Shown in pieces: positions 7,284 to 33,462 of a DNA stretch of 64,000 bases (position 1 is its first letter; each line of letters opens with the position of its first letter). The notes under the pieces were generated by a model, which saw nothing but the letters and a program-made list of their open reading frames with translations, was not told the DNA's origin and did no database searches. Location of the stretch: NCBI GenBank assembly GCA_024637195.1, contig JAGXFN010000002.1:186001-250000 (forward strand), read 5' to 3'. This DNA comes from Arcobacter sp. GTDB lineage: Bacteria > Campylobacterota > Campylobacteria > Campylobacterales > Sulfurimonadaceae. The translations under genes and the position numbers were made by a program.

Positions 7284-7865
7284 ATGAGCCGAATTGATAA
7301 TGAAAAATTTTATACCGCTTCTATCGAAAAATATGGGGACACAGCCAAAGGAGCGCACTGGAACTCTGCGCAATCCCAAGAGAAACGATTTGAGATACTG
7401 CTCTCGTGTATTCAGGATAAGGCTTTTTCTATCGTGGATGCCGGATGCGGATTTGGCGACTTGCATACCTTTCTTAAGACAAAAAATATCTCCTTCTTAT
7501 CGTATAAGGGTCTGGACATAAGCCCAAGTATGGCAAAAATTGCCCGGGCAAAGACAGGATGCGAGATTATAGAGTGTGATATCTGCCGCGATATTCTGCC
7601 TACAGCGGACTACTATATCTGCAGCGGAGCCATGAATATTTTAAGCCGTTTTGAGACCTATCTCTTTATCCGAAACTGCTATAACGCCTGCACAAAAGGA
7701 TTCGTCTTTAACCTGCTGATGGGAGATGACGACTCTTTGGTCTATAATCACTTCTATCCTGATGAGTTGCAGGGGCTCTTTGACGAGCTGGGTGCGAAGG
7801 TAAAGATCGTCAAGGGATATGTAGCGCACGATTTTACGGTCTTTATGCAAAAGGTCGACGCTTAA
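7284..7865 (+). CDS. Class I SAM-dependent methyltransferase
   Basis: A 193-residue protein with methyltransferase motif I, IVDAGCGFGDLHTFL (about residues 50-64), the acidic GLDISPSM motif II and an ECDI motif. A small Rossmann fold fills the whole protein. The substrate is unknown. An in-frame TTG at 7266 exists but lies within the promoter, so the ATG is preferred. The gene ends one base before asnB and is surely in its operon. Related methyltransferases modify small molecules or lipids; the asnB link suggests amidated metabolites but proves nothing. Confidence 0.8.
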   Translation: MSRIDNEKFYTASIEKYGDTAKGAHWNSAQSQEKRFEILLSCIQDKAFSIVDAGCGFGDLHTFLKTKNISFLSYKGLDISPSMAKIARAKTGCEIIECDICRDILPTADYYICSGAMNILSRFETYLFIRNCYNACTKGFVFNLLMGDDDSLVYNHFYPDELQGLFDELGAKVKIVKGYVAHDFTVFMQKVDA

Positions 7866-7866
7866 G

Positions 7867-9666
7867 ATGTGTGCGATTTTCGGCATAGTGGGGGAGTATG
7901 ATGCAGCCTTGGCACGCAGGTCTGTTTCACTTCTTTCACACCGCGGCCCCGATTACTGCGGGATAGTAGAAAAAGAGGGGCTCTTTATCGCCCATAACCG
8001 GCTCAGCATCGTTGACCTGCGCGTCACTGCCTCTCAGCCGATGAGCAAAGCGGAGGTGATCCTCAGTTTTAACGGCGAGATATACAACTATAAAAAGCTA
8101 AAAAAAGAGTTGGATATCCCTTTTCAGACAGACAGTGATGCCGAAGTGGTCCTGGCAGCCTACCTGAAATGGGGGGTCAGCTTTGTCGATCATCTCGAAG
8201 GGATGTTTGCTATAGCGCTTTATGACAAGGGCAAACTCTATCTCTTCCGTGACCGTCTGGGAAAAAAACCGCTCTACTATATGTACACGGACAATCAACT
8301 GGTCTTTGCTTCGGAGATCAAAGGAATACTTCCACACCTGAAACAAAAAAAGATGAACAAGGATGCTCTGCACAGTTATCTGAGTTTTCTGGCCCCGACC
8401 CCTCCTCACACTTTTTATCAAGGGATAGAAAAGCTTGAATCCGGCCATTTTATCCGGTATGAAAGAGGGAGGCTGGAGATCAAGCCCTATTATGATCTTC
8501 TGCCGGCTTGTATTGAGATTAGTTCCGAAGAGGAAGCCTTAAGCACGATAGAGAGTGCCTTGAAAGAGAGCATACAAAAGCGTCTGATGGGAGATGTTGA
8601 GGTCGCGTCATTGCTCTCAGGCGGGGTTGACTCCTCGTTGATCGCGGCGATGGCGGCACAGATGGGCACGGGTCTGAAGACCTTCTCTTTGGGGTATAAG
8701 GGGTACAAGCAGTATGACGAACGCCGCTACGCCAAAGAAGCGGCGGCGCATATCGGAGTGGAAAACATTGATGTCGAGCTTACGAAAGAGGAGTTCTTTG
8801 AAAATCTTGATGCGGTCATAACTGCTTTGGACGAGCCGGTAAACGATCCCGCCGCAGTACCCTTGTATATGCTTTTTAAACGGATAAAAGAGGAGGGGAT
8901 CAAGGTCGTGCTAAGCGGCGAGGGTGCCGACGAGCTCTTCTTGGGGTACCGGCAGTATTTTGAGTATCTTGACATTGAAAAGGCGGGAAATCTTCAGCAT
9001 AAAAACTGGCTCAAAAAGTATTTCCGCTCCAACTTCTCCATGAACAGGGAGTGGGAATGGTACAAGCGGATCTTCAATGACGAGCTGCTCTTTCGAAGCA
9101 GCGGCGAAAAGTTTACCGACAGGCAGAAGAATCTTCTGATGCGCCAAAATGTAAAAGACGGTTTTTCAATGCAGTACCTGCAAAAGTACCGCGACCGGTA
9201 TGAAAAGCTGGGCAACAAGGACGAGAGCCAGTGGTACACCTACGTAGATCTCAAGCAGTTTCAAGCAGAGCATTTTCTCACTAAGCTTGACCGTGTCTCG
9301 ATGGCGCACGGGATCGAGGGGAGGACTCCGTTTCTAGACCATAAACTTGTCGAAAAAGTCTTTTCGATCGAGCCTTCTCTGCGCTATAGCACAGGAGTCA
9401 GCAAGGCACTTTTGAAAAAAGTGGCCGCGCCCTATCTGCCGCAAAACCTTATCAACAGAAAGAAAAAAGGTTTTTCCTCTCCTTATCTTGAGTGGCTTTT
9501 GGAAGAGGGGGAGTTGGCGTGCATTGCGCGGGTCAATGCCCAGACAGGGCTTTTCTATCCAGAGGTCCTAGACGAGTATATTAGCAGGGGCAGACAGGGA
9601 CAGTACAAACAGCATCTGTGGGGACTCTATCTTTTTTCCCGCTGGTATGAAAAAGAGTTTTTGTAA
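7867..9666 (+). CDS. asnB: Asparagine synthase (glutamine-hydrolysing) AsnB
   Basis: A 599-residue class B asparagine synthetase that makes asparagine from aspartate, ATP and glutamine. The N-terminal Cys2 (MCAIFGIVG) is the glutaminase nucleophile after Met removal, with the HNRLSIVD and SFNGEIYNY motifs of the Ntn domain. The synthetase domain has the PP-loop LLSGGVDSSLIAA near residue 254 and the KxxGEGADELFLGY-type segment near residue 350. Length is standard. AsnB-family proteins also amidate other acids in cell-surface or antibiotic pathways, so the adjacent methyltransferase leaves room for a non-standard role. Confidence 0.94.
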   Translation: MCAIFGIVGEYDAALARRSVSLLSHRGPDYCGIVEKEGLFIAHNRLSIVDLRVTASQPMSKAEVILSFNGEIYNYKKLKKELDIPFQTDSDAEVVLAAYLKWGVSFVDHLEGMFAIALYDKGKLYLFRDRLGKKPLYYMYTDNQLVFASEIKGILPHLKQKKMNKDALHSYLSFLAPTPPHTFYQGIEKLESGHFIRYERGRLEIKPYYDLLPACIEISSEEEALSTIESALKESIQKRLMGDVEVASLLSGGVDSSLIAAMAAQMGTGLKTFSLGYKGYKQYDERRYAKEAAAHIGVENIDVELTKEEFFENLDAVITALDEPVNDPAAVPLYMLFKRIKEEGIKVVLSGEGADELFLGYRQYFEYLDIEKAGNLQHKNWLKKYFRSNFSMNREWEWYKRIFNDELLFRSSGEKFTDRQKNLLMRQNVKDGFSMQYLQKYRDRYEKLGNKDESQWYTYVDLKQFQAEHFLTKLDRVSMAHGIEGRTPFLDHKLVEKVFSIEPSLRYSTGVSKALLKKVAAPYLPQNLINRKKKGFSSPYLEWLLEEGELACIARVNAQTGLFYPEVLDEYISRGRQGQYKQHLWGLYLFSRWYEKEFL

Positions 9667-27571: not shown

Positions 27572-28177
27572 ATGAAATTAGTTTTAGCAACATCAAATAA
27601 GGGTAAGGTAAGAGAGATCACGGCCATGTACAGCGATTTTGAAGTGATACCCTACAGCGACCTGATCGAGCCTTTTGAGATCGTTGAAGACGCGGCGGAT
27701 TTCAAGGGAAATGCTCTGATTAAGGCTCGAGCAGTCTACAAGGCTTTGGGCGATGAGGAGGCGATCGTCTTCTCTGATGACAGCGGTATCAGCGTGGAGG
27801 TCCTAGACGGTGCACCCGGGGTTTTCTCCGCGCGTTACGGCGGAGAAGAAGCGAGCGACAGGGACAACCTGGACAAACTGATGCGCGAGCTGAAAAAAAC
27901 AGGCCTTAAAAGCTCGCCCGCATTCTATACGGCGGCGATTGCCATCGTCTGCAAAGAGGGAGAGTACACGACCCACGGCTGGATGCACGGGAGTGTGCTG
28001 AGCGAGCCAAGAGGCGAAGCGGGATTTGGATACGATCCCTGTTTTGTTCCCCAGGGCTACGACAAGACTCTGGGTGAACTTGATGAGAGCGTCAAGTCAA
28101 AACTCTCACACCGCTCCCAGGCCCTTGCCAATGCCAAGCCGATTTTACGGGTGATACGAAAGATGCGGGAGAGATAA
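27572..28177 (+). CDS. rdgB: XTP/dITP diphosphatase RdgB (Ham1 family)
   Basis: A 201-residue house-cleaning pyrophosphatase that removes ITP, dITP and XTP from the nucleotide pool. Signatures are the N-terminal SNKGKVREI, FKGNALIKARA, FSDDSGISVEVLDGAPGVFSARY and GFGYDPCFVP; SHRSQALA is near the end. It is complete. Its last codons (VIRKMRER) are repeated at 32467-32493, beyond the Rhs locus, where the expected terminator is also found, so this gene's 3' end is the insertion point of the Rhs island. Confidence 0.95.
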   Translation: MKLVLATSNKGKVREITAMYSDFEVIPYSDLIEPFEIVEDAADFKGNALIKARAVYKALGDEEAIVFSDDSGISVEVLDGAPGVFSARYGGEEASDRDNLDKLMRELKKTGLKSSPAFYTAAIAIVCKEGEYTTHGWMHGSVLSEPRGEAGFGYDPCFVPQGYDKTLGELDESVKSKLSHRSQALANAKPILRVIRKMRER

Positions 28178-28184
28178 AGGAGAG
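28149..28184 (+). repeat. Direct repeat copy A: 3' end of rdgB
   Basis: The first 30 bases of this stretch, covering the rdgB last codons and stop, match 32467-32496 with only two differences (GGGTGATACGAAAGAT in both). The following bases (GGAGAG versus GAGGAG) are similar but shifted. The copies flank the Rhs locus. Confidence 0.85.
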
Positions 28185-28405
28185 TAAAACTCCGGCCCTG
28201 CTATTTAATATCGTAAATAAGATTTGATCAAATTGCCGTAAAAGTGGAGATTCATTCACGGAGATGTTGCTTTTTCTTCAGGGGTGAATGGCTACCTCTC
28301 GTCATTTGACCAAAGGGAATGCCTGTGGTGCCCTGATCTGTCAACACTTTATAGGACACAGAATTTCTAACGCTCCCTAATCTTTTGGCTTCAATCTGCC
28401 ATAGC
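28178..28405. other. Non-coding flank with possible insertion-sequence remnant
   Basis: No gene is supported between rdgB and the small membrane ORF. A piece of the lost terminator (GGCCCTG) remains near 28194. On the minus strand 28331-28380 contains TTCTGTGTCCTATAAAGTG, which resembles the ends of IS256-group insertion sequences as I remember them. Read on the minus strand, a short open stretch without a start codon runs from about 28380 to 28255. This is suggestive debris, not a gene. Confidence 0.35.
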
Positions 28406-28684
28406 CTAAAAATATTCAAAATATATTTTCAATAATGCAACAAAATTACATGATAATAAGAGTAAAAAAATTATGAATTCATAATTATAATAACTTATAT
28501 TAATTCCTTCTTCTTTAAGCAATTCATATCTTCTTTGATTAAAGTACAAAACTAGTAAAGGAAAAAACACTATAATCTCTTGATAATTACTAAATGTGAA
28601 TTGATTCCAAACGGTTATTATTATTAATATAATAAATAACATAACAAGAGGAAATTTTAATTTTAATAATAATGTTAAACTCAT
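28406..28684 (-). CDS. Small membrane protein behind the Rhs gene (possible immunity protein)
   Basis: A 92-residue protein with about three hydrophobic helices (LLLKLKFPLVMLFIILIIIT, EIIVFFPLLVLYF, FIIFLLLLSCNFVALL) and AT-rich codons unlike the flanking core genes. I do not recognise a family. The chosen ATG lies directly behind the Rhs stop codon; an ATG 15 bases earlier would overlap it. No clear ribosome site is seen for either. Position immediately after an Rhs protein is where immunity genes sit, but the Rhs tip here is short, so this is only a possibility. Confidence 0.5.
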   Translation of the reverse strand: MSLTLLLKLKFPLVMLFIILIIITVWNQFTFSNYQEIIVFFPLLVLYFNQRRYELLKEEGINISYYNYEFIIFLLLLSCNFVALLKIYFEYF

Positions 28685-28685
28685 T

Positions 28686-31600
28686 CTATTTACACGCATT
28701 CAACACATTTGCACTATTTGCTATTCCATCTAATGTTAATCCAAGTAATGGTCCTGATACTGCTAAAGCTGCGCCACCTAAAGCTCCAGCTAGTGCACCG
28801 GCAACCATATTCTGAAAATAATTACCGCCACTAGGAGTAGTTGCATACGCCGTAGCTCCTCCAACAAAAGCTCCAGCTACTAGACCTACACCAATCAATG
28901 GATTTAACCCCTCCGGATCCACAAAATTCACCGGATCCCCAAGCACATACCCATAAAGATTCGTATCCCCACCACTAAAACCTATAGGGTCTTTAGCAGT
29001 CCACTTTCCTGTTTGGGCATCATAGTCTCTATACCCAAACCTTGTGAGTTTGGTGTCTGTGTCGTAAAGACCTCCTGCAAACCCGAATGGAACTTTAAAA
29101 GTCTCATTACTATCACTAAGCACATTACCAAAAGTATCGTACTCAATAATTTTTATGATTGTACCGTCTTCCGAGCTAACTGCTTTTAGTGTTCCTACTT
29201 GATCATAATGCATATAATGCTTTTGACCATTATAAGTCATTTTATATGGCATACGCTGATCAGCATATTCAAATCTCTGAACAAGATTATCACTTCCGTC
29301 ATAAACAGCTAGAAGTGTAGTTAAGTCTGCCCATAGATATTTCTCTGTGATTACTCCATTGACTTTCTTAGCTACTCGTTGGTTATGAGCATTATGTAAA
29401 TACTCAATGGTAACTTCCTGTGTAACTACACTATGTAGCTCCCCTAATGTACCATAACTATAATGTGTTGTTCCAAGAGGTGTTACCTTACTTGCAAGAT
29501 ACCCATCTTCATCATATGCATATATCGTATCCCCAACTTGTTCTAGCTGATCTTCTATGGTGTAGCTGATATTATCGCTTATACGATTTCCGTTTACGTT
29601 GTATGTGTAAGATTCGGTTGCTACTCCGTTTTTGTCAACACTACTTAGACGACCCATCTCGTCATATCTATATGTATATACATCTTGATTTGAACCTATA
29701 TACTCTGTTTTTTGGATGATCTTCCCATTCATATCACGCTTGTCTATGTTATAACCATAAAGTGTGCTCATGTTTACCATATCATCGCTAGCAGAAATTT
29801 CTCCATATTCATTATGACTTCTGTTTTGAGTAAAACTACCTTCTCCAATCGACTCTACAAGTCCATTCCTGCTATTACGTGTAATAGATGCATTACCTCG
29901 TTGAACAAGTAAGCCATCATTGTCATACAATACACTTTCTTCACCATCTGCATATGCCATCGAAGAAACAAGGAAATCATTATTGTACATGTATGAAATA
30001 CTTTGATTTAATATTCCAGAATAGTGCATATTAGTTAATAGTTCACCATCATATGTGTAATCAATACTTTTACTTCCGATTGCAGCATTTATAGGTAGGT
30101 CTCCACATCCATATACATAGTTGGTTGTTCCTTCAGGACGTACAATAGAGTTTAAACGTCCATCACTGTAGATGTAGTCAATATTTTTACTGGAAGCTTT
30201 ATGGATATTAATCAAACGGCGTTTTTTATCGTAGTTATATTGTGTTTCATTTCCTAATGGGGATATATCAGATACCCTTTTATCTACTCCGTTATAAGTA
30301 AAGCTATAATCTGATGGAGTTGGTGTTGTAAGTTTTAACATATTGCCGTTGGCATCATACTCAAAAAGTGTACTATAACCATTTGGATGTGCAATACTAG
30401 TCATACGATTAAGTGTATCGTAGGCATAATTAGTAGTTTGACCCATAGAATTCGTATAGCTTGCAACATTTCCTCTTTCATCATATTGATAAACCTGAGT
30501 ACGCTCTCCTTGTTTTTGTGCTAAGAGGTTGCCTTCATTATTATAACTATATAGAATTGGTTCAATTCCTGATTGAACCAAAGAAACTGCTTGTTCAGAA
30601 ATAGGATCAAACTCTATCTCAATATTTCTATTTTCAGGTGAGGCAATAGTCTCTCTATGAGTTGTATAATCTTTTGTCAGTGTATGAGTATTTCCATTGA
30701 AGTTAATGGTGTCTATAACTTCTTCCGTAGATACTCCATTAAAAATATACTCTCTACTCATACTTCTAGTACTCGTTAAACCATTGGGAGTTGTAATAGT
30801 ATTTGATGCTAATCTTTTTTGAGTTGTAATATCATCATATGTATATACATTTTTAGTTGAAAGACCGCATGTGGTAGCTGTAACTTCAAGTTCATCATTA
30901 GTAGTTGTAACTGTCGTTATATCACCAGTAGGGGATATGCTTTTTGAGGTTTGCGTTCCATTAACAGGATAAAAGTTTTCAAAACTACTTGTTTCTCCCT
31001 CAGGATCAGTTAAGAGGATTAAACCTTTTGTACTATCTCCAGTATTATAAAATTCCCATGTCCCATCTACTGCATCAGTGAGTGAAGTAAGTCTTCCATA
31101 ACTGTCAAAATTATGTAAAAAACTATTACTGATCGGATCTTTCTCTTGAGACATTAAAGCACCAACATCATATTTAAAGGTATATGCTGATCGATCTTCG
31201 TATTGAACACTAAGTAGATTATTTTTTCTATCAACTTTTAATTTTGTCATTTCACCATGAGGGGCTATGATAGATAATGCTTTTCCTTGTTTACTACGTT
31301 TAATAGTAGTCGTTAGATTAAAACGATCTGTTATACCAAGAAGTAAACCATTAGAGTCATAGGAAAATGAAAATAATGTATTGCCTGTGATAGAATCAAA
31401 ACTTCTTACAATATTTCCATTTATATCAAACTGATGACCTATATGATTTTCATTATAAAGTATAATTTCATTATTTCCATTAACAGTATATTGTGACGCT
31501 TCTAATTTTACCACGCTACCATTTCCAAGATAAAGGTAAGGTGCTTTAAAATGATGGACATTTGATAGAGTCCAGCCATTAGCTATATCGGTAACAACAT

Positions 31601-32099
31601 AATCACCCATTCCATCTATATAATCAGCAGTTCTTGAACTCGCATAGTGAAGAGTATGTTTTACACCTGTTATTTCAATATCTTCGTGAAATTCACGAGT
31701 TTTTGGAATAACGAAAGAGTTAACACACATCGGTTCAGCTCCGGCATCTCCTTTTTCAGGTTCTCCTGGCTTAGAAACATTATTAAATTTTGGCAGTTTA
31801 GCAGTTTTTGGTTCAAGGCAAAAGTCACCATAATGATCAGTTCCTTTTGGACATGATGAAAATCCAGCATACTCAGTCCACCACTCAAATCTTTGCACAC
31901 CTGGTTGAAAATCCCAATATATTGCTCCATTATTAGAATCAAGGCATTGCCAAAACTGTCTCGTAGATTCATCAGGAAAATTAAAACCCTCTACTTTCTC
32001 TAGAGTAAAATAGTGTTCTCCTGGACAGATATCTAATGCAATTAAATTCGTTGACATTATTAGTGTTAATGCAACTGATGAAATTACTTTTTTTAACAT
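28686..32099 (-). CDS. Secreted Rhs/YD-repeat protein with very short C-terminal tip
   Basis: A 1137-residue protein. A Sec signal peptide (residues 1-22, ending LIALD) is followed by a Cys-containing N-terminal region (residues 23-140), then many YD repeats (for example YDERGNVASYTNSMGQ, YDTLNRMTS, FEYDANGNMLKL) to about residue 990, and the Rhs core ending RFGYRDYDAQTGKWTAKDPIGFSGG-type motif and VDPEGL at about residue 1065. Rhs proteins form a shell that encloses a variable C-terminal toxin. Here only 72 residues follow the core, Gly/Ala-rich and hydrophobic, so no recognisable toxin is attached. The gene is AT-rich against its neighbours, a sign of transfer. Confidence 0.88.
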   Translation of the reverse strand: MLKKVISSVALTLIMSTNLIALDICPGEHYFTLEKVEGFNFPDESTRQFWQCLDSNNGAIYWDFQPGVQRFEWWTEYAGFSSCPKGTDHYGDFCLEPKTAKLPKFNNVSKPGEPEKGDAGAEPMCVNSFVIPKTREFHEDIEITGVKHTLHYASSRTADYIDGMGDYVVTDIANGWTLSNVHHFKAPYLYLGNGSVVKLEASQYTVNGNNEIILYNENHIGHQFDINGNIVRSFDSITGNTLFSFSYDSNGLLLGITDRFNLTTTIKRSKQGKALSIIAPHGEMTKLKVDRKNNLLSVQYEDRSAYTFKYDVGALMSQEKDPISNSFLHNFDSYGRLTSLTDAVDGTWEFYNTGDSTKGLILLTDPEGETSSFENFYPVNGTQTSKSISPTGDITTVTTTNDELEVTATTCGLSTKNVYTYDDITTQKRLASNTITTPNGLTSTRSMSREYIFNGVSTEEVIDTINFNGNTHTLTKDYTTHRETIASPENRNIEIEFDPISEQAVSLVQSGIEPILYSYNNEGNLLAQKQGERTQVYQYDERGNVASYTNSMGQTTNYAYDTLNRMTSIAHPNGYSTLFEYDANGNMLKLTTPTPSDYSFTYNGVDKRVSDISPLGNETQYNYDKKRRLINIHKASSKNIDYIYSDGRLNSIVRPEGTTNYVYGCGDLPINAAIGSKSIDYTYDGELLTNMHYSGILNQSISYMYNNDFLVSSMAYADGEESVLYDNDGLLVQRGNASITRNSRNGLVESIGEGSFTQNRSHNEYGEISASDDMVNMSTLYGYNIDKRDMNGKIIQKTEYIGSNQDVYTYRYDEMGRLSSVDKNGVATESYTYNVNGNRISDNISYTIEDQLEQVGDTIYAYDEDGYLASKVTPLGTTHYSYGTLGELHSVVTQEVTIEYLHNAHNQRVAKKVNGVITEKYLWADLTTLLAVYDGSDNLVQRFEYADQRMPYKMTYNGQKHYMHYDQVGTLKAVSSEDGTIIKIIEYDTFGNVLSDSNETFKVPFGFAGGLYDTDTKLTRFGYRDYDAQTGKWTAKDPIGFSGGDTNLYGYVLGDPVNFVDPEGLNPLIGVGLVAGAFVGGATAYATTPSGGNYFQNMVAGALAGALGGAALAVSGPLLGLTLDGIANSANVLNACK

Positions 32100-32156
32100 T
32101 ATATTTCCTTACTTAGTATAGAAACCTATGATTACTTAATTTCATAATAAAAAATA

Positions 32157-32162
32157 ATTATA
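32157..32162 (-). promoter_or_regulatory. Candidate -10 element for the Rhs gene
   Basis: On the minus strand TATAAT lies about 58 bases before the Rhs start, which has an AAGGAAA ribosome site. Other AT-rich boxes (TATACT at 32115-32120, TATAAT at 32173-32178) are possible, so this choice is weak. Confidence 0.3.
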
Positions 32163-32262
32163 CATATTTAGTATTATAATTTTCTTAGGGTACCTCTAAA
32201 AACCCAAATAAATTTCCCATAAGTGCCAATCGGGTAAAAAAAAATAAAATTATAAATAAGTG

Positions 32263-32323
32263 GGAACTAGGGGTCTAGTGACAAGTATAGGAACTAGAAA
32301 GTTAGGGGTCAGGTGACAAGTAT
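32263..32323. repeat. Tandem imperfect repeat with GGGGTC...GTGACAAGTATA core
   Basis: Two 22-base blocks (32268-32289 and 32302-32323 region) share 20 positions, each with TAGGGGTC followed by GTGACAAGTATA, and each is preceded by GGAACTAG. The spacing is about 35 bases. Similar GGGGTCAGGT sequences border Y1-transposase (RAYT) elements in other bacteria as far as I remember. Confidence 0.6.
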
Positions 32324-32466
32324 AAATAAATGTCTCTTCCTTCGTCATCCTTGGGTTTTGCGTTACGAACAGAATGGTCTAACTGTTTTAAATCTATTAT
32401 AGCAAGAGGTTGATCCCCGGGTCGAGCCCGAGAGAAAAACTTTCTGTTTTCTAATGAAATAATGAG

Positions 32467-32502
32467 GGGTGATACGAAAGATACGGGAGTGATAAAGAGG
32501 AG
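32467..32502 (+). repeat. Direct repeat copy B: displaced rdgB 3' end
   Basis: This fragment encodes GVIRKIRE-stop, matching the RdgB C-terminus RVIRKMRER, with no gene in front of it. It is followed after a few bases by a good terminator, as would be expected behind an intact rdgB. Two base differences from copy A in 30. Confidence 0.85.
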
Positions 32503-32505
32503 GCA

Positions 32506-32540
32506 AGCCCTGAACTTTGTACTTTCAGGGCTCTTTTTTT
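32506..32540 (+). terminator. Intrinsic terminator behind the displaced rdgB end
   Basis: AGCCCTGAA (32506-32514) pairs with TTCAGGGCT (32524-32532) around a nine-base loop and is followed by seven T in a row. It is probably the original rdgB terminator, now separated from the gene by the Rhs island. Confidence 0.8.
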
Positions 32541-32691
32541 ATAGTATTTTTTTGCTCAACGAACATAAAAATGATTCAAGTGATTCGCTCAAGCGGTCAA
32601 TGAGATGAAGTGCTTTTAATGTCATCTTAAAATCCTTATGCGGGCTCGATATGAGTTGTCCGCAAGAACTAAAGCAAAATGTATTCCAGTC

Positions 32692-33462
32692 TTAAAGCTC
32701 TACCCCGAAGATGCCGAAGAGGATTCCCGAAGCGATCAGATAGATGCCAAAGGGGGTGAAGTTGTACTTTGCAACGATGGCCAAAAAACTCTTGACGGCC
32801 AGCCATCCGACGACGAAAGAGACAGAAAAGCCCATCAAAAGCATAGACGCTCCGTCGAAGGTGAGGCTGCTGTACTCTTTAAACAGGGTGTAGCCCGAGG
32901 CTGCGGTCATCGTCGGTATCGCCAGCAAAAATGAAAAACTCATCGACACCTCACGTTTCATTCCCAGAAGCATTCCTCCTAAAATCGTACTTCCCGAACG
33001 CGATATTCCCGGAATCAAGGAGAGGGCCTGGAAAAATCCGACGAAGATAGCCTGCTTGTAGCTGACCTCTTCAAGCTCAAAGGTGTGATGCCCCCTTCGG
33101 GTGTAGACAAACTCCAGGATCAAAAAGAAGACACCCGTTGCGATCATCCACAAAACGATACTGTTGGCCGAGAACATTACCTCGATCTGTTTATGAAAAA
33201 GAAGGCCGATGACACCGGTCGGGATAAAGGCGACGATGAGTTTTTTCCAGATCTCAAGACTCTGTAAGAGCGTGCTATAGTAGATGATCATGATCGAAAA
33301 GATAGGTGCGATCTGTATGATGATGTTAAAGGCGTTCATAAACTCGTCTTGAGCTATCCCCATCATCTGCGACGTCAGTGCGATATGCGCCGTGGAAGAG
33401 ACTGGTAAAAACTCAGTAATCCCTTCAACCACGCCCAGGATAGCCGCTTCATAAAGTGTCAT
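32692..33462 (-). CDS. uppP: Undecaprenyl-diphosphatase UppP (BacA)
   Basis: A 256-residue membrane enzyme with about eight helices that recycles undecaprenyl pyrophosphate to the phosphate for peptidoglycan synthesis. The first conserved region GVVEGITEFLPVSSTAH with the catalytic Glu/Ser-Thr pair and the second region QALSLIPGISRSGSTI with the catalytic Arg are both intact. Length is a little under the family average, as in other Campylobacterota. It also gives bacitracin tolerance in other bacteria. Confidence 0.96.
   Translation of the reverse strand: MTLYEAAILGVVEGITEFLPVSSTAHIALTSQMMGIAQDEFMNAFNIIIQIAPIFSIMIIYYSTLLQSLEIWKKLIVAFIPTGVIGLLFHKQIEVMFSANSIVLWMIATGVFFLILEFVYTRRGHHTFELEEVSYKQAIFVGFFQALSLIPGISRSGSTILGGMLLGMKREVSMSFSFLLAIPTMTAASGYTLFKEYSSLTFDGASMLLMGFSVSFVVGWLAVKSFLAIVAKYNFTPFGIYLIASGILFGIFGVEL

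What the first reader, a model, noticed from the sequence alone, without database searches (positions are those of the whole stretch)
28149..32540. Rhs island inserted at the rdgB 3' end with duplication of that end and displacement of its terminator
The last codons and stop of rdgB (28149-28178) recur as an orphan at 32467-32496 with 28 of 30 identical bases. The orphan copy is the one followed by a good terminator (AGCCCTGAA/TTCAGGGCT plus T run), whereas rdgB itself is followed by only a fragment (GGCCCTG). The 4.3-kb DNA between is AT-rich and holds an Rhs protein, a small membrane ORF and insertion-sequence debris. That geometry is what site-specific integration at a gene 3' end produces (attL/attR), yet no integrase is in the segment. 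Either an integrase was lost, or the element uses recombination in trans, or rdgB ends are a hotspot for Rhs cassette exchange.
Basis: partly seen in the sequence, partly recalled or inferred. Interest (0 to 1): 0.78.

Follow-up and report, generated by a model that had tools for sequence, protein, structure and literature searches.

The report
Old DNA insertion at rdgB's end
A 4.3-kb block of acquired DNA carrying a candidate inter-bacterial toxin sits between two copies of the tail of the housekeeping gene rdgB; a sister species shares both edges but carries different genes inside, so this is an old insertion site whose contents were swapped and whose inserting enzyme is gone.

Summary
The last bases and stop codon of rdgB (28149-28184) recur as an orphan at 32467-32502 (32 of 36 identical). 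It is the only gene-end duplication found on the 337-kb contig. Four relatives of the same genus have the predicted empty site: rdgB, a short spacer, a conserved micro-ORF, uppP. The closest relative, Kmv12, is occupied. It shares both junctions (30/31 and 30/32 identical bases), but where it is assembled it holds other genes: a ParE-type toxin pair, an HNH ORF and a diverged extra copy of the uppP end. So one insertion predates the split of the two species, and the contents then turned over. The Rhs gene, with a small overlapping membrane ORF that looks like its immunity gene, is later cargo and does not define the element. No integrase is recognised in the segment, near rdgB in any surveyed relative, or in the assembled Kmv12 sequence. 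An attL/attR relic is the best reading but is not proven. rdgB ends are not a general hotspot: about 150 other rdgB loci gave one further case, a perfect 44-bp duplication in Candidatus Thiovulum stygium. Incidentally, 20 of 32 rdgB-uppP intervals carry a sigma-54-like motif (0.05 expected), mostly followed by a micro-ORF.

The parts
27572..28177 (+). rdgB (non-canonical purine NTP pyrophosphatase), intact 201 codons; its last codons form the proximal repeat copy
   Evidence: ORF; 89% identical orthologue in Kmv12 and 76-80% in four congeners
28149..28184 (+). proximal repeat copy (attL-like): last codons and stop of rdgB plus about 7 nt
28185..28225 (+). left junction of the insertion; 28180-28211 matches the Kmv12 rdgB contig end at 30/32 bases
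   Evidence: alignment
28294..28333 (.). 40-nt dispersed repeat, 40/40 identical in the Kmv12 islet (other orientation); 34 nt also present once on contig C15 of the own genome
28406..28699 (-). 97-aa hydrophobic ORF overlapping the end of the rhs gene by 14 nt; candidate immunity protein
   Evidence: weak homologue in the same position directly after an Rhs C-terminus in G024 contig C70
28686..32099 (-). Rhs/YD-repeat protein, 1137 aa, signal-peptide-like N-terminus, Rhs-associated core to residue 1065, short glycine-rich tip 1066-1137 (28689-28904)
   Evidence: Pfam TEN_YD-shell 1.4e-37, RHS_repeat 5e-23; NCBIfam TIGR03696 3e-20
32268..32330 (+). two copies of a dispersed AGGGGTCAGGTGACAAGTATAAATAA-type repeat
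32436..32466 (+). right junction of the insertion, 30/31 identical to Kmv12
32467..32502 (+). orphan (distal, attR-like) copy of the rdgB 3' end
32506..32540 (+). native rdgB-side terminator, displaced 4.3 kb from rdgB
   Evidence: -16.7 kcal/mol, z -2.6
32539..32625 (-). conserved 28-codon micro-ORF MTLKALHLIDRLSESLESFLCSLSKKIL, part of the native right flank
32672..32688 (-). sigma-54-like promoter motif TGGAATACATTTTGCTT upstream of the micro-ORF
32692..33462 (-). uppP (bacA-type undecaprenyl-diphosphatase), right-hand flanking gene

Best explanation
This is the relic of one insertion event at the 3' end of rdgB in the common ancestor of the window genome and Campylobacterales bacterium Kmv12. 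The repeats mark its ends and behave like attL and attR: the copy that completes rdgB came with, or was remade by, the element, and the displaced original end still adjoins the native terminator, micro-ORF and uppP. Most likely a site-specific recombinase with a core of about 30 bp inside the last codons of rdgB did this and was later deleted, as the two copies have each drifted. The inside then turned over independently, leaving an Rhs gene with its probable immunity gene in the window genome, and a ParE-type toxin pair, an HNH ORF and a foreign uppP end in Kmv12. Shown: empty sites, shared junctions, different cargo. Inferred: the recombinase, and which copy is original.
For: Empty site in G001, G002, G003, G005: rdgB to uppP 255-406 bp, no orphan in those whole genomes. 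Kmv12: rdgB with the same right-hand junction (30/32), and an orphan rdgB end with the same left flank (30/31), its own hairpin, micro-ORF and uppP. Within each genome the two copies differ at 3-4 of about 30 positions, comparable with the 9-11% divergence of the two species over this region, so the event dates to about the split or slightly before. The duplication is exceptional: the only gene-end duplication on the 337-kb contig and none at other genes in about 2.1 Mb of neighbourhoods of other genomes, apart from repeats internal to coding sequence. Geometry matches the published signature of integrase islands, a regenerated target plus a displaced fragment (PMC4383910).
Against: No integrase in the segment, near rdgB in any surveyed relative, or in the assembled Kmv12 sequence at the locus. 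No attP-like copy in IMG/VR by exact pattern. No plasmid or phage resembles the island. The repeat has no obvious recombinase arm symmetry (by eye). Kmv12 also has a partial duplication of the uppP end, which integration at rdgB alone does not explain.
Confidence: 0.5

Rival explanations
1. No integrase was involved. DNA from a related species was taken up and joined by recombination at the conserved flanking genes on one side and illegitimately on the other, leaving partial extra copies of flanking gene ends (rdgB end in both species, uppP end in Kmv12).
For: Kmv12 carries a second, diverged copy of terminator, sigma-54-like motif, micro-ORF and uppP end (80% DNA identity over 281 bp), with differences mostly at third codon positions (15 of 20), which suggests import of a functional allele from an unsampled relative. 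Short dispersed repeats in the islets could offer further homology.
Against: If this were the usual route, gene-end duplications should be seen elsewhere; none was found at other genes on the contig or in 2.1 Mb of other neighbourhoods. The uppP fragment could post-date the rdgB duplication. The third-position bias rests on 20 differences and cannot exclude an old in-place copy.
Confidence: 0.3
2. An ancestral tandem duplication of the stretch from the rdgB end to the uppP end (rdgB, spacer, uppP end, rdgB end, spacer, uppP), later filled and eroded by cargo.
For: Kmv12's order (uppP-end fragment to the left, rdgB end to the right, then the intact set) is what such a duplication would leave.
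Against: The extra copy is 81% identical to both species in the uppP end while they are 95% identical to each other, so the duplication would have to be much older than the rdgB-end repeat, whose copies are about 90% identical. The window genome has no trace of the uppP fragment. The orphan's left flank does not occur elsewhere in the compared flanks or on the contig beyond 12-bp chance matches.
Confidence: 0.12
3. The insertion is an Rhs cassette exchanged between rdgB ends.
For: Rhs with a linked small membrane gene is the main cargo in the window genome.
Against: Kmv12 uses the same junctions without Rhs in the assembled parts; its Rhs homologues lie on contigs C19 and C29; Rhs relatives occur in 34 of 200 family genomes, and where rdgB positions are known they are not at rdgB.
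Confidence: 0.04
4. Assembly artefact (chimeric join) in the window genome.
For: Both genomes are metagenome-style drafts and dispersed repeats are present.
Against: Both junctions recur in an independent assembly of another species.
Confidence: 0.03

Closest known systems
Integrase islands at tRNA/tmRNA gene ends (Islander set, PMC4383910)
   Same: Regenerated target gene plus displaced 3' fragment bounding foreign DNA
   Different: Target is a protein gene; no integrase present; copies have drifted
Islands at protein-gene 3' ends, e.g. SGI1 at trmE (PMC8409611, abstract)
   Same: Insertion at the 3' end of a conserved housekeeping gene that stays intact
   Different: 4.3 kb, no integrase or mobilisation genes; rdgB not found as a target in the open-access papers searched
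Rhs pore-forming toxins such as Tse5 (PMC10684867, PMC9637101)
   Same: YD-repeat shell with Rhs-associated core and short hydrophobic tip; here followed by a small membrane gene as a candidate immunity gene
   Different: Signal-peptide-like N-terminus rather than a type VI delivery domain (no such domain found); activity untested

Membership tests
Site-specific integrative genomic island at a gene 3' end | Direct repeats, one completing the target gene and the other displaced | tested here: met
Site-specific integrative genomic island at a gene 3' end | Empty attB-like site in close relatives | tested here: met
   four congeners; but the 30-bp sequence itself is not conserved in them
Site-specific integrative genomic island at a gene 3' end | Integrase gene inside the element | tested here: not met
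   none in 28185-32466; none near rdgB in relatives; the unassembled Kmv12 gap is not excluded
Site-specific integrative genomic island at a gene 3' end | Excision to a circle | not testable with these tools
   needs PCR or reads across 28184/32467
Rhs polymorphic toxin | YD/RHS repeats plus Rhs-associated core domain | tested here: met
Rhs polymorphic toxin | Variable toxic tip with adjacent cognate immunity gene | tested here: inconclusive
   72-aa tip and overlapping 97-aa ORF; distant homologue in the same arrangement in G024; toxicity untested

The most novel reading that the evidence does not exclude
The rdgB 3' end is a genuine, previously unreported attachment site used independently in distant Campylobacterota: the ancestor of the window genome and Kmv12, and Candidatus Thiovulum stygium, where the last 44 bp of rdgB are perfectly duplicated around 224 bp that resemble, by eye, a fragment of the KilA-N-like gene next door. 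The integrases have been lost or act from elsewhere in the genome.
Probability: 0.25. Interest if true: 0.5.

Novelty: new member of a known kind. Interest (0 to 1): 0.36.

Why it matters
It gives a clean before-and-after case: empty congeners and two occupied sister species sharing one insertion event but carrying different toxin-type cargo. That shows an integration scar can outlive its element and remain a place where competition or defence genes are swapped. It also places rdgB among protein genes whose ends may serve as targets. The conserved sigma-54-like motif and micro-ORF found beside it may deserve more attention than the islet.

Tried and rejected
Chance match: rejected. tRNA, tmRNA or known RNA at the site: none. 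Phage or plasmid origin of the island DNA: no match. attP-like copy of the repeat in IMG/VR, and rdgB-bearing viral contigs: none. General hotspot at rdgB: rejected by 80 further genomes. A genome-wide process making gene-end duplications: no sign of it on this contig. Literature with rdgB or HAM1 as integration target: hits were irrelevant, a phage DNA-binding protein called RdgB, a hamster isolate named Ham1, and a virulence-gene table.

Full report
Observation. The repeat exists as described. The last codons and stop of rdgB (28149-28184) recur at 32467-32502 with 32 of 36 identical bases, and the 30-mer pattern occurs only at these two places in the 2.18-Mb assembly (shuffle expectation 0). 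The orphan copy is followed by a strong hairpin with a T run (-16.7 kcal/mol, z -2.6), and rdgB by no better than shuffled sequence (-5.2, z -0.1). The segment between is AT-rich (0.34 against 0.457).

How unusual is it? I read the whole 337,722-bp contig and looked for direct repeats of 24-400 bp, at least 85% identical, 0.1-25 kb apart. Two pairs exist; only this one touches a gene 3' end (289 ORFs examined). In 944 kb of rdgB neighbourhoods from other Campylobacterota (813 ORFs, some genomes represented twice) the only gene-end duplication was again at rdgB, in Candidatus Thiovulum stygium. In 1.2 Mb from 80 more Campylobacterales genomes (1008 ORFs) the only repeat touching a gene end was one with both copies inside coding sequence (L223), and no rdgB end was duplicated. 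So gene-end duplication is rare, and rdgB ends are not a general hotspot. Because the window case is how the question arose, only the Thiovulum case is independent evidence for the site, and one case in about 150 rdgB loci is weak.

Empty sites. In four congeners (G001, G002, G003, G005; by contig number and length, G002, G003 and G005 match the records named NORP14, Sulfurimonas sp. UWMA-0129 and MAG313) rdgB is followed after 255-406 bp by uppP, with a terminator-like spacer and a micro-ORF between, and no second rdgB end. A search of their whole genomes with the orphan and its flank finds nothing.

Occupied sister. The closest relative, Campylobacterales bacterium Kmv12 (G004; rdgB 89%, uppP 96% protein identity), is split over two contigs at this locus. 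Contig C9 ends 98 bp after rdgB; the first 32 of those bases match the window's left junction at 30/32. Contig C57 carries, left to right, a two-gene unit whose second product matches ParE toxin (1.2e-13), a diverged copy of terminator, sigma-54-like motif, micro-ORF and truncated uppP end, an ORF with an HNH domain (1.9e-8), dispersed repeats, then an orphan rdgB end whose left flank matches the window's at 30/31, then its own hairpin, micro-ORF and intact uppP. The contig break lies at a sequence also present, with one mismatch, at the end of another Kmv12 contig, so the two halves probably flank a repeat, but their adjacency is inferred. Both junctions are therefore shared by two species in independent assemblies, while the cargo differs. 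This excludes a chimeric assembly and a purely Rhs-defined element.

Age and direction. Within each genome the two copies differ at 3-4 of about 30 positions, comparable with the 9-11% nucleotide difference between the species over this region. The insertion thus happened around or somewhat before the split. The orphan adjoins the native terminator, micro-ORF and uppP, so it is probably the original end and the copy now completing rdgB came with the element or was remade by it (inference).

Mechanism. The geometry is that of an integrase island (regenerated target plus displaced fragment, PMC4383910). Supporting: exceptional repeat, empty sites, foreign composition, shared junctions. Missing: an integrase. 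None is in the segment; of the integrases listed for 60 relatives none lies within 20 kb of rdgB by coordinates (list truncated); and two integrases of the family used as queries hit none of the rdgB neighbourhoods. The Kmv12 gap could hide one. A second feature is not explained by integration at rdgB: Kmv12's extra uppP end, 81% identical to both species in its last 35 codons with 15 of 20 differences at third codon positions. That looks like DNA from another relative brought in by recombination, so later turnover of the islet probably used homologous or illegitimate recombination. I give integrase origin about 0.5 and recombination with relatives' DNA about 0.3.

Cargo. The Rhs protein (1137 aa) has the YD shell and Rhs-associated core, a signal-peptide-like start and a 72-aa glycine-rich hydrophobic tip. 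A 97-aa hydrophobic ORF overlaps its end by 14 nt. In G024 (another genus of the family) an Rhs C-terminus 57% identical to this one ends in a different glycine-rich tip and is overlapped in the same way by a 100-aa distant homologue (E 4.5e-4) of the 97-aa ORF. This conserved arrangement supports a toxin-immunity pair, perhaps membrane-acting like Tse5 (PMC10684867, PMC9637101; titles and abstracts); activity is untested. Because rhs is on the minus strand and rdgB has lost its terminator, read-through from rdgB would run antisense into this pair (inference).

Thiovulum. In Candidatus Thiovulum stygium the last 44 bp of rdgB recur perfectly 224 bp downstream; the DNA between resembles, by eye, part of the KilA-N-like gene next door (the family name is from memory, not a profile search). 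This is compatible with the same kind of event but could be a local duplication.

Side finding. Twenty of 32 rdgB-uppP intervals carry a sigma-54-like motif (GGAAY-N6/7-TGCT) downstream of uppP, against 0.05 expected in mononucleotide shuffles, mostly followed by a 28-34-codon ORF with a similar C-terminus (for example SKKIL, SQKFL, SRKFL). C. jejuni is known to have an RpoN-dependent sRNA, CJnc230, at a different place, downstream of flgE (PMC11187230). Whether this unit encodes a microprotein or an RNA is open.

Noticed in passing
window 32539-32688, minus strand: Sigma-54-like promoter motif (TGGAATACATTTTGCTT) followed by a 28-codon micro-ORF downstream of uppP; motif present in 20 of 32 rdgB-uppP intervals across the family (0.05 expected by shuffling), mostly with a similar 28-34-codon ORF. 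Candidate RpoN-controlled microprotein or small RNA.
   Followed up: partly
L085 (Kmv12 contig C57) 1111-1387: Second, diverged copy of terminator, sigma-54-like motif, micro-ORF and truncated uppP end, probably imported from another species.
   Followed up: partly
L077 (Candidatus Thiovulum stygium) 7557-7600 and 7825-7868: Perfect 44-bp duplication of the rdgB 3' end around 224 bp resembling part of a neighbouring KilA-N-like gene; further on, an ORF that looks by eye like a diversity-generating retroelement reverse transcriptase end fused to a DUF1566-like target (names from memory).
   Followed up: partly
window 28294-28333 and 32268-32330; L143-L155: Two short dispersed repeats (GGTGACAAGTATAAATAA type: 8 copies in the own genome, 5 in Kmv12, none for the reversed control; and a 40-mer ending CCTGTGGTGCCC) mark segment boundaries in both islets.
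   Followed up: partly
G296 contig C1, 1126432 and 1237449: Two rdgB copies with identical scores about 111 kb apart in one Campylobacterales genome, suggesting a large duplication or an assembly repeat.
   Followed up: no
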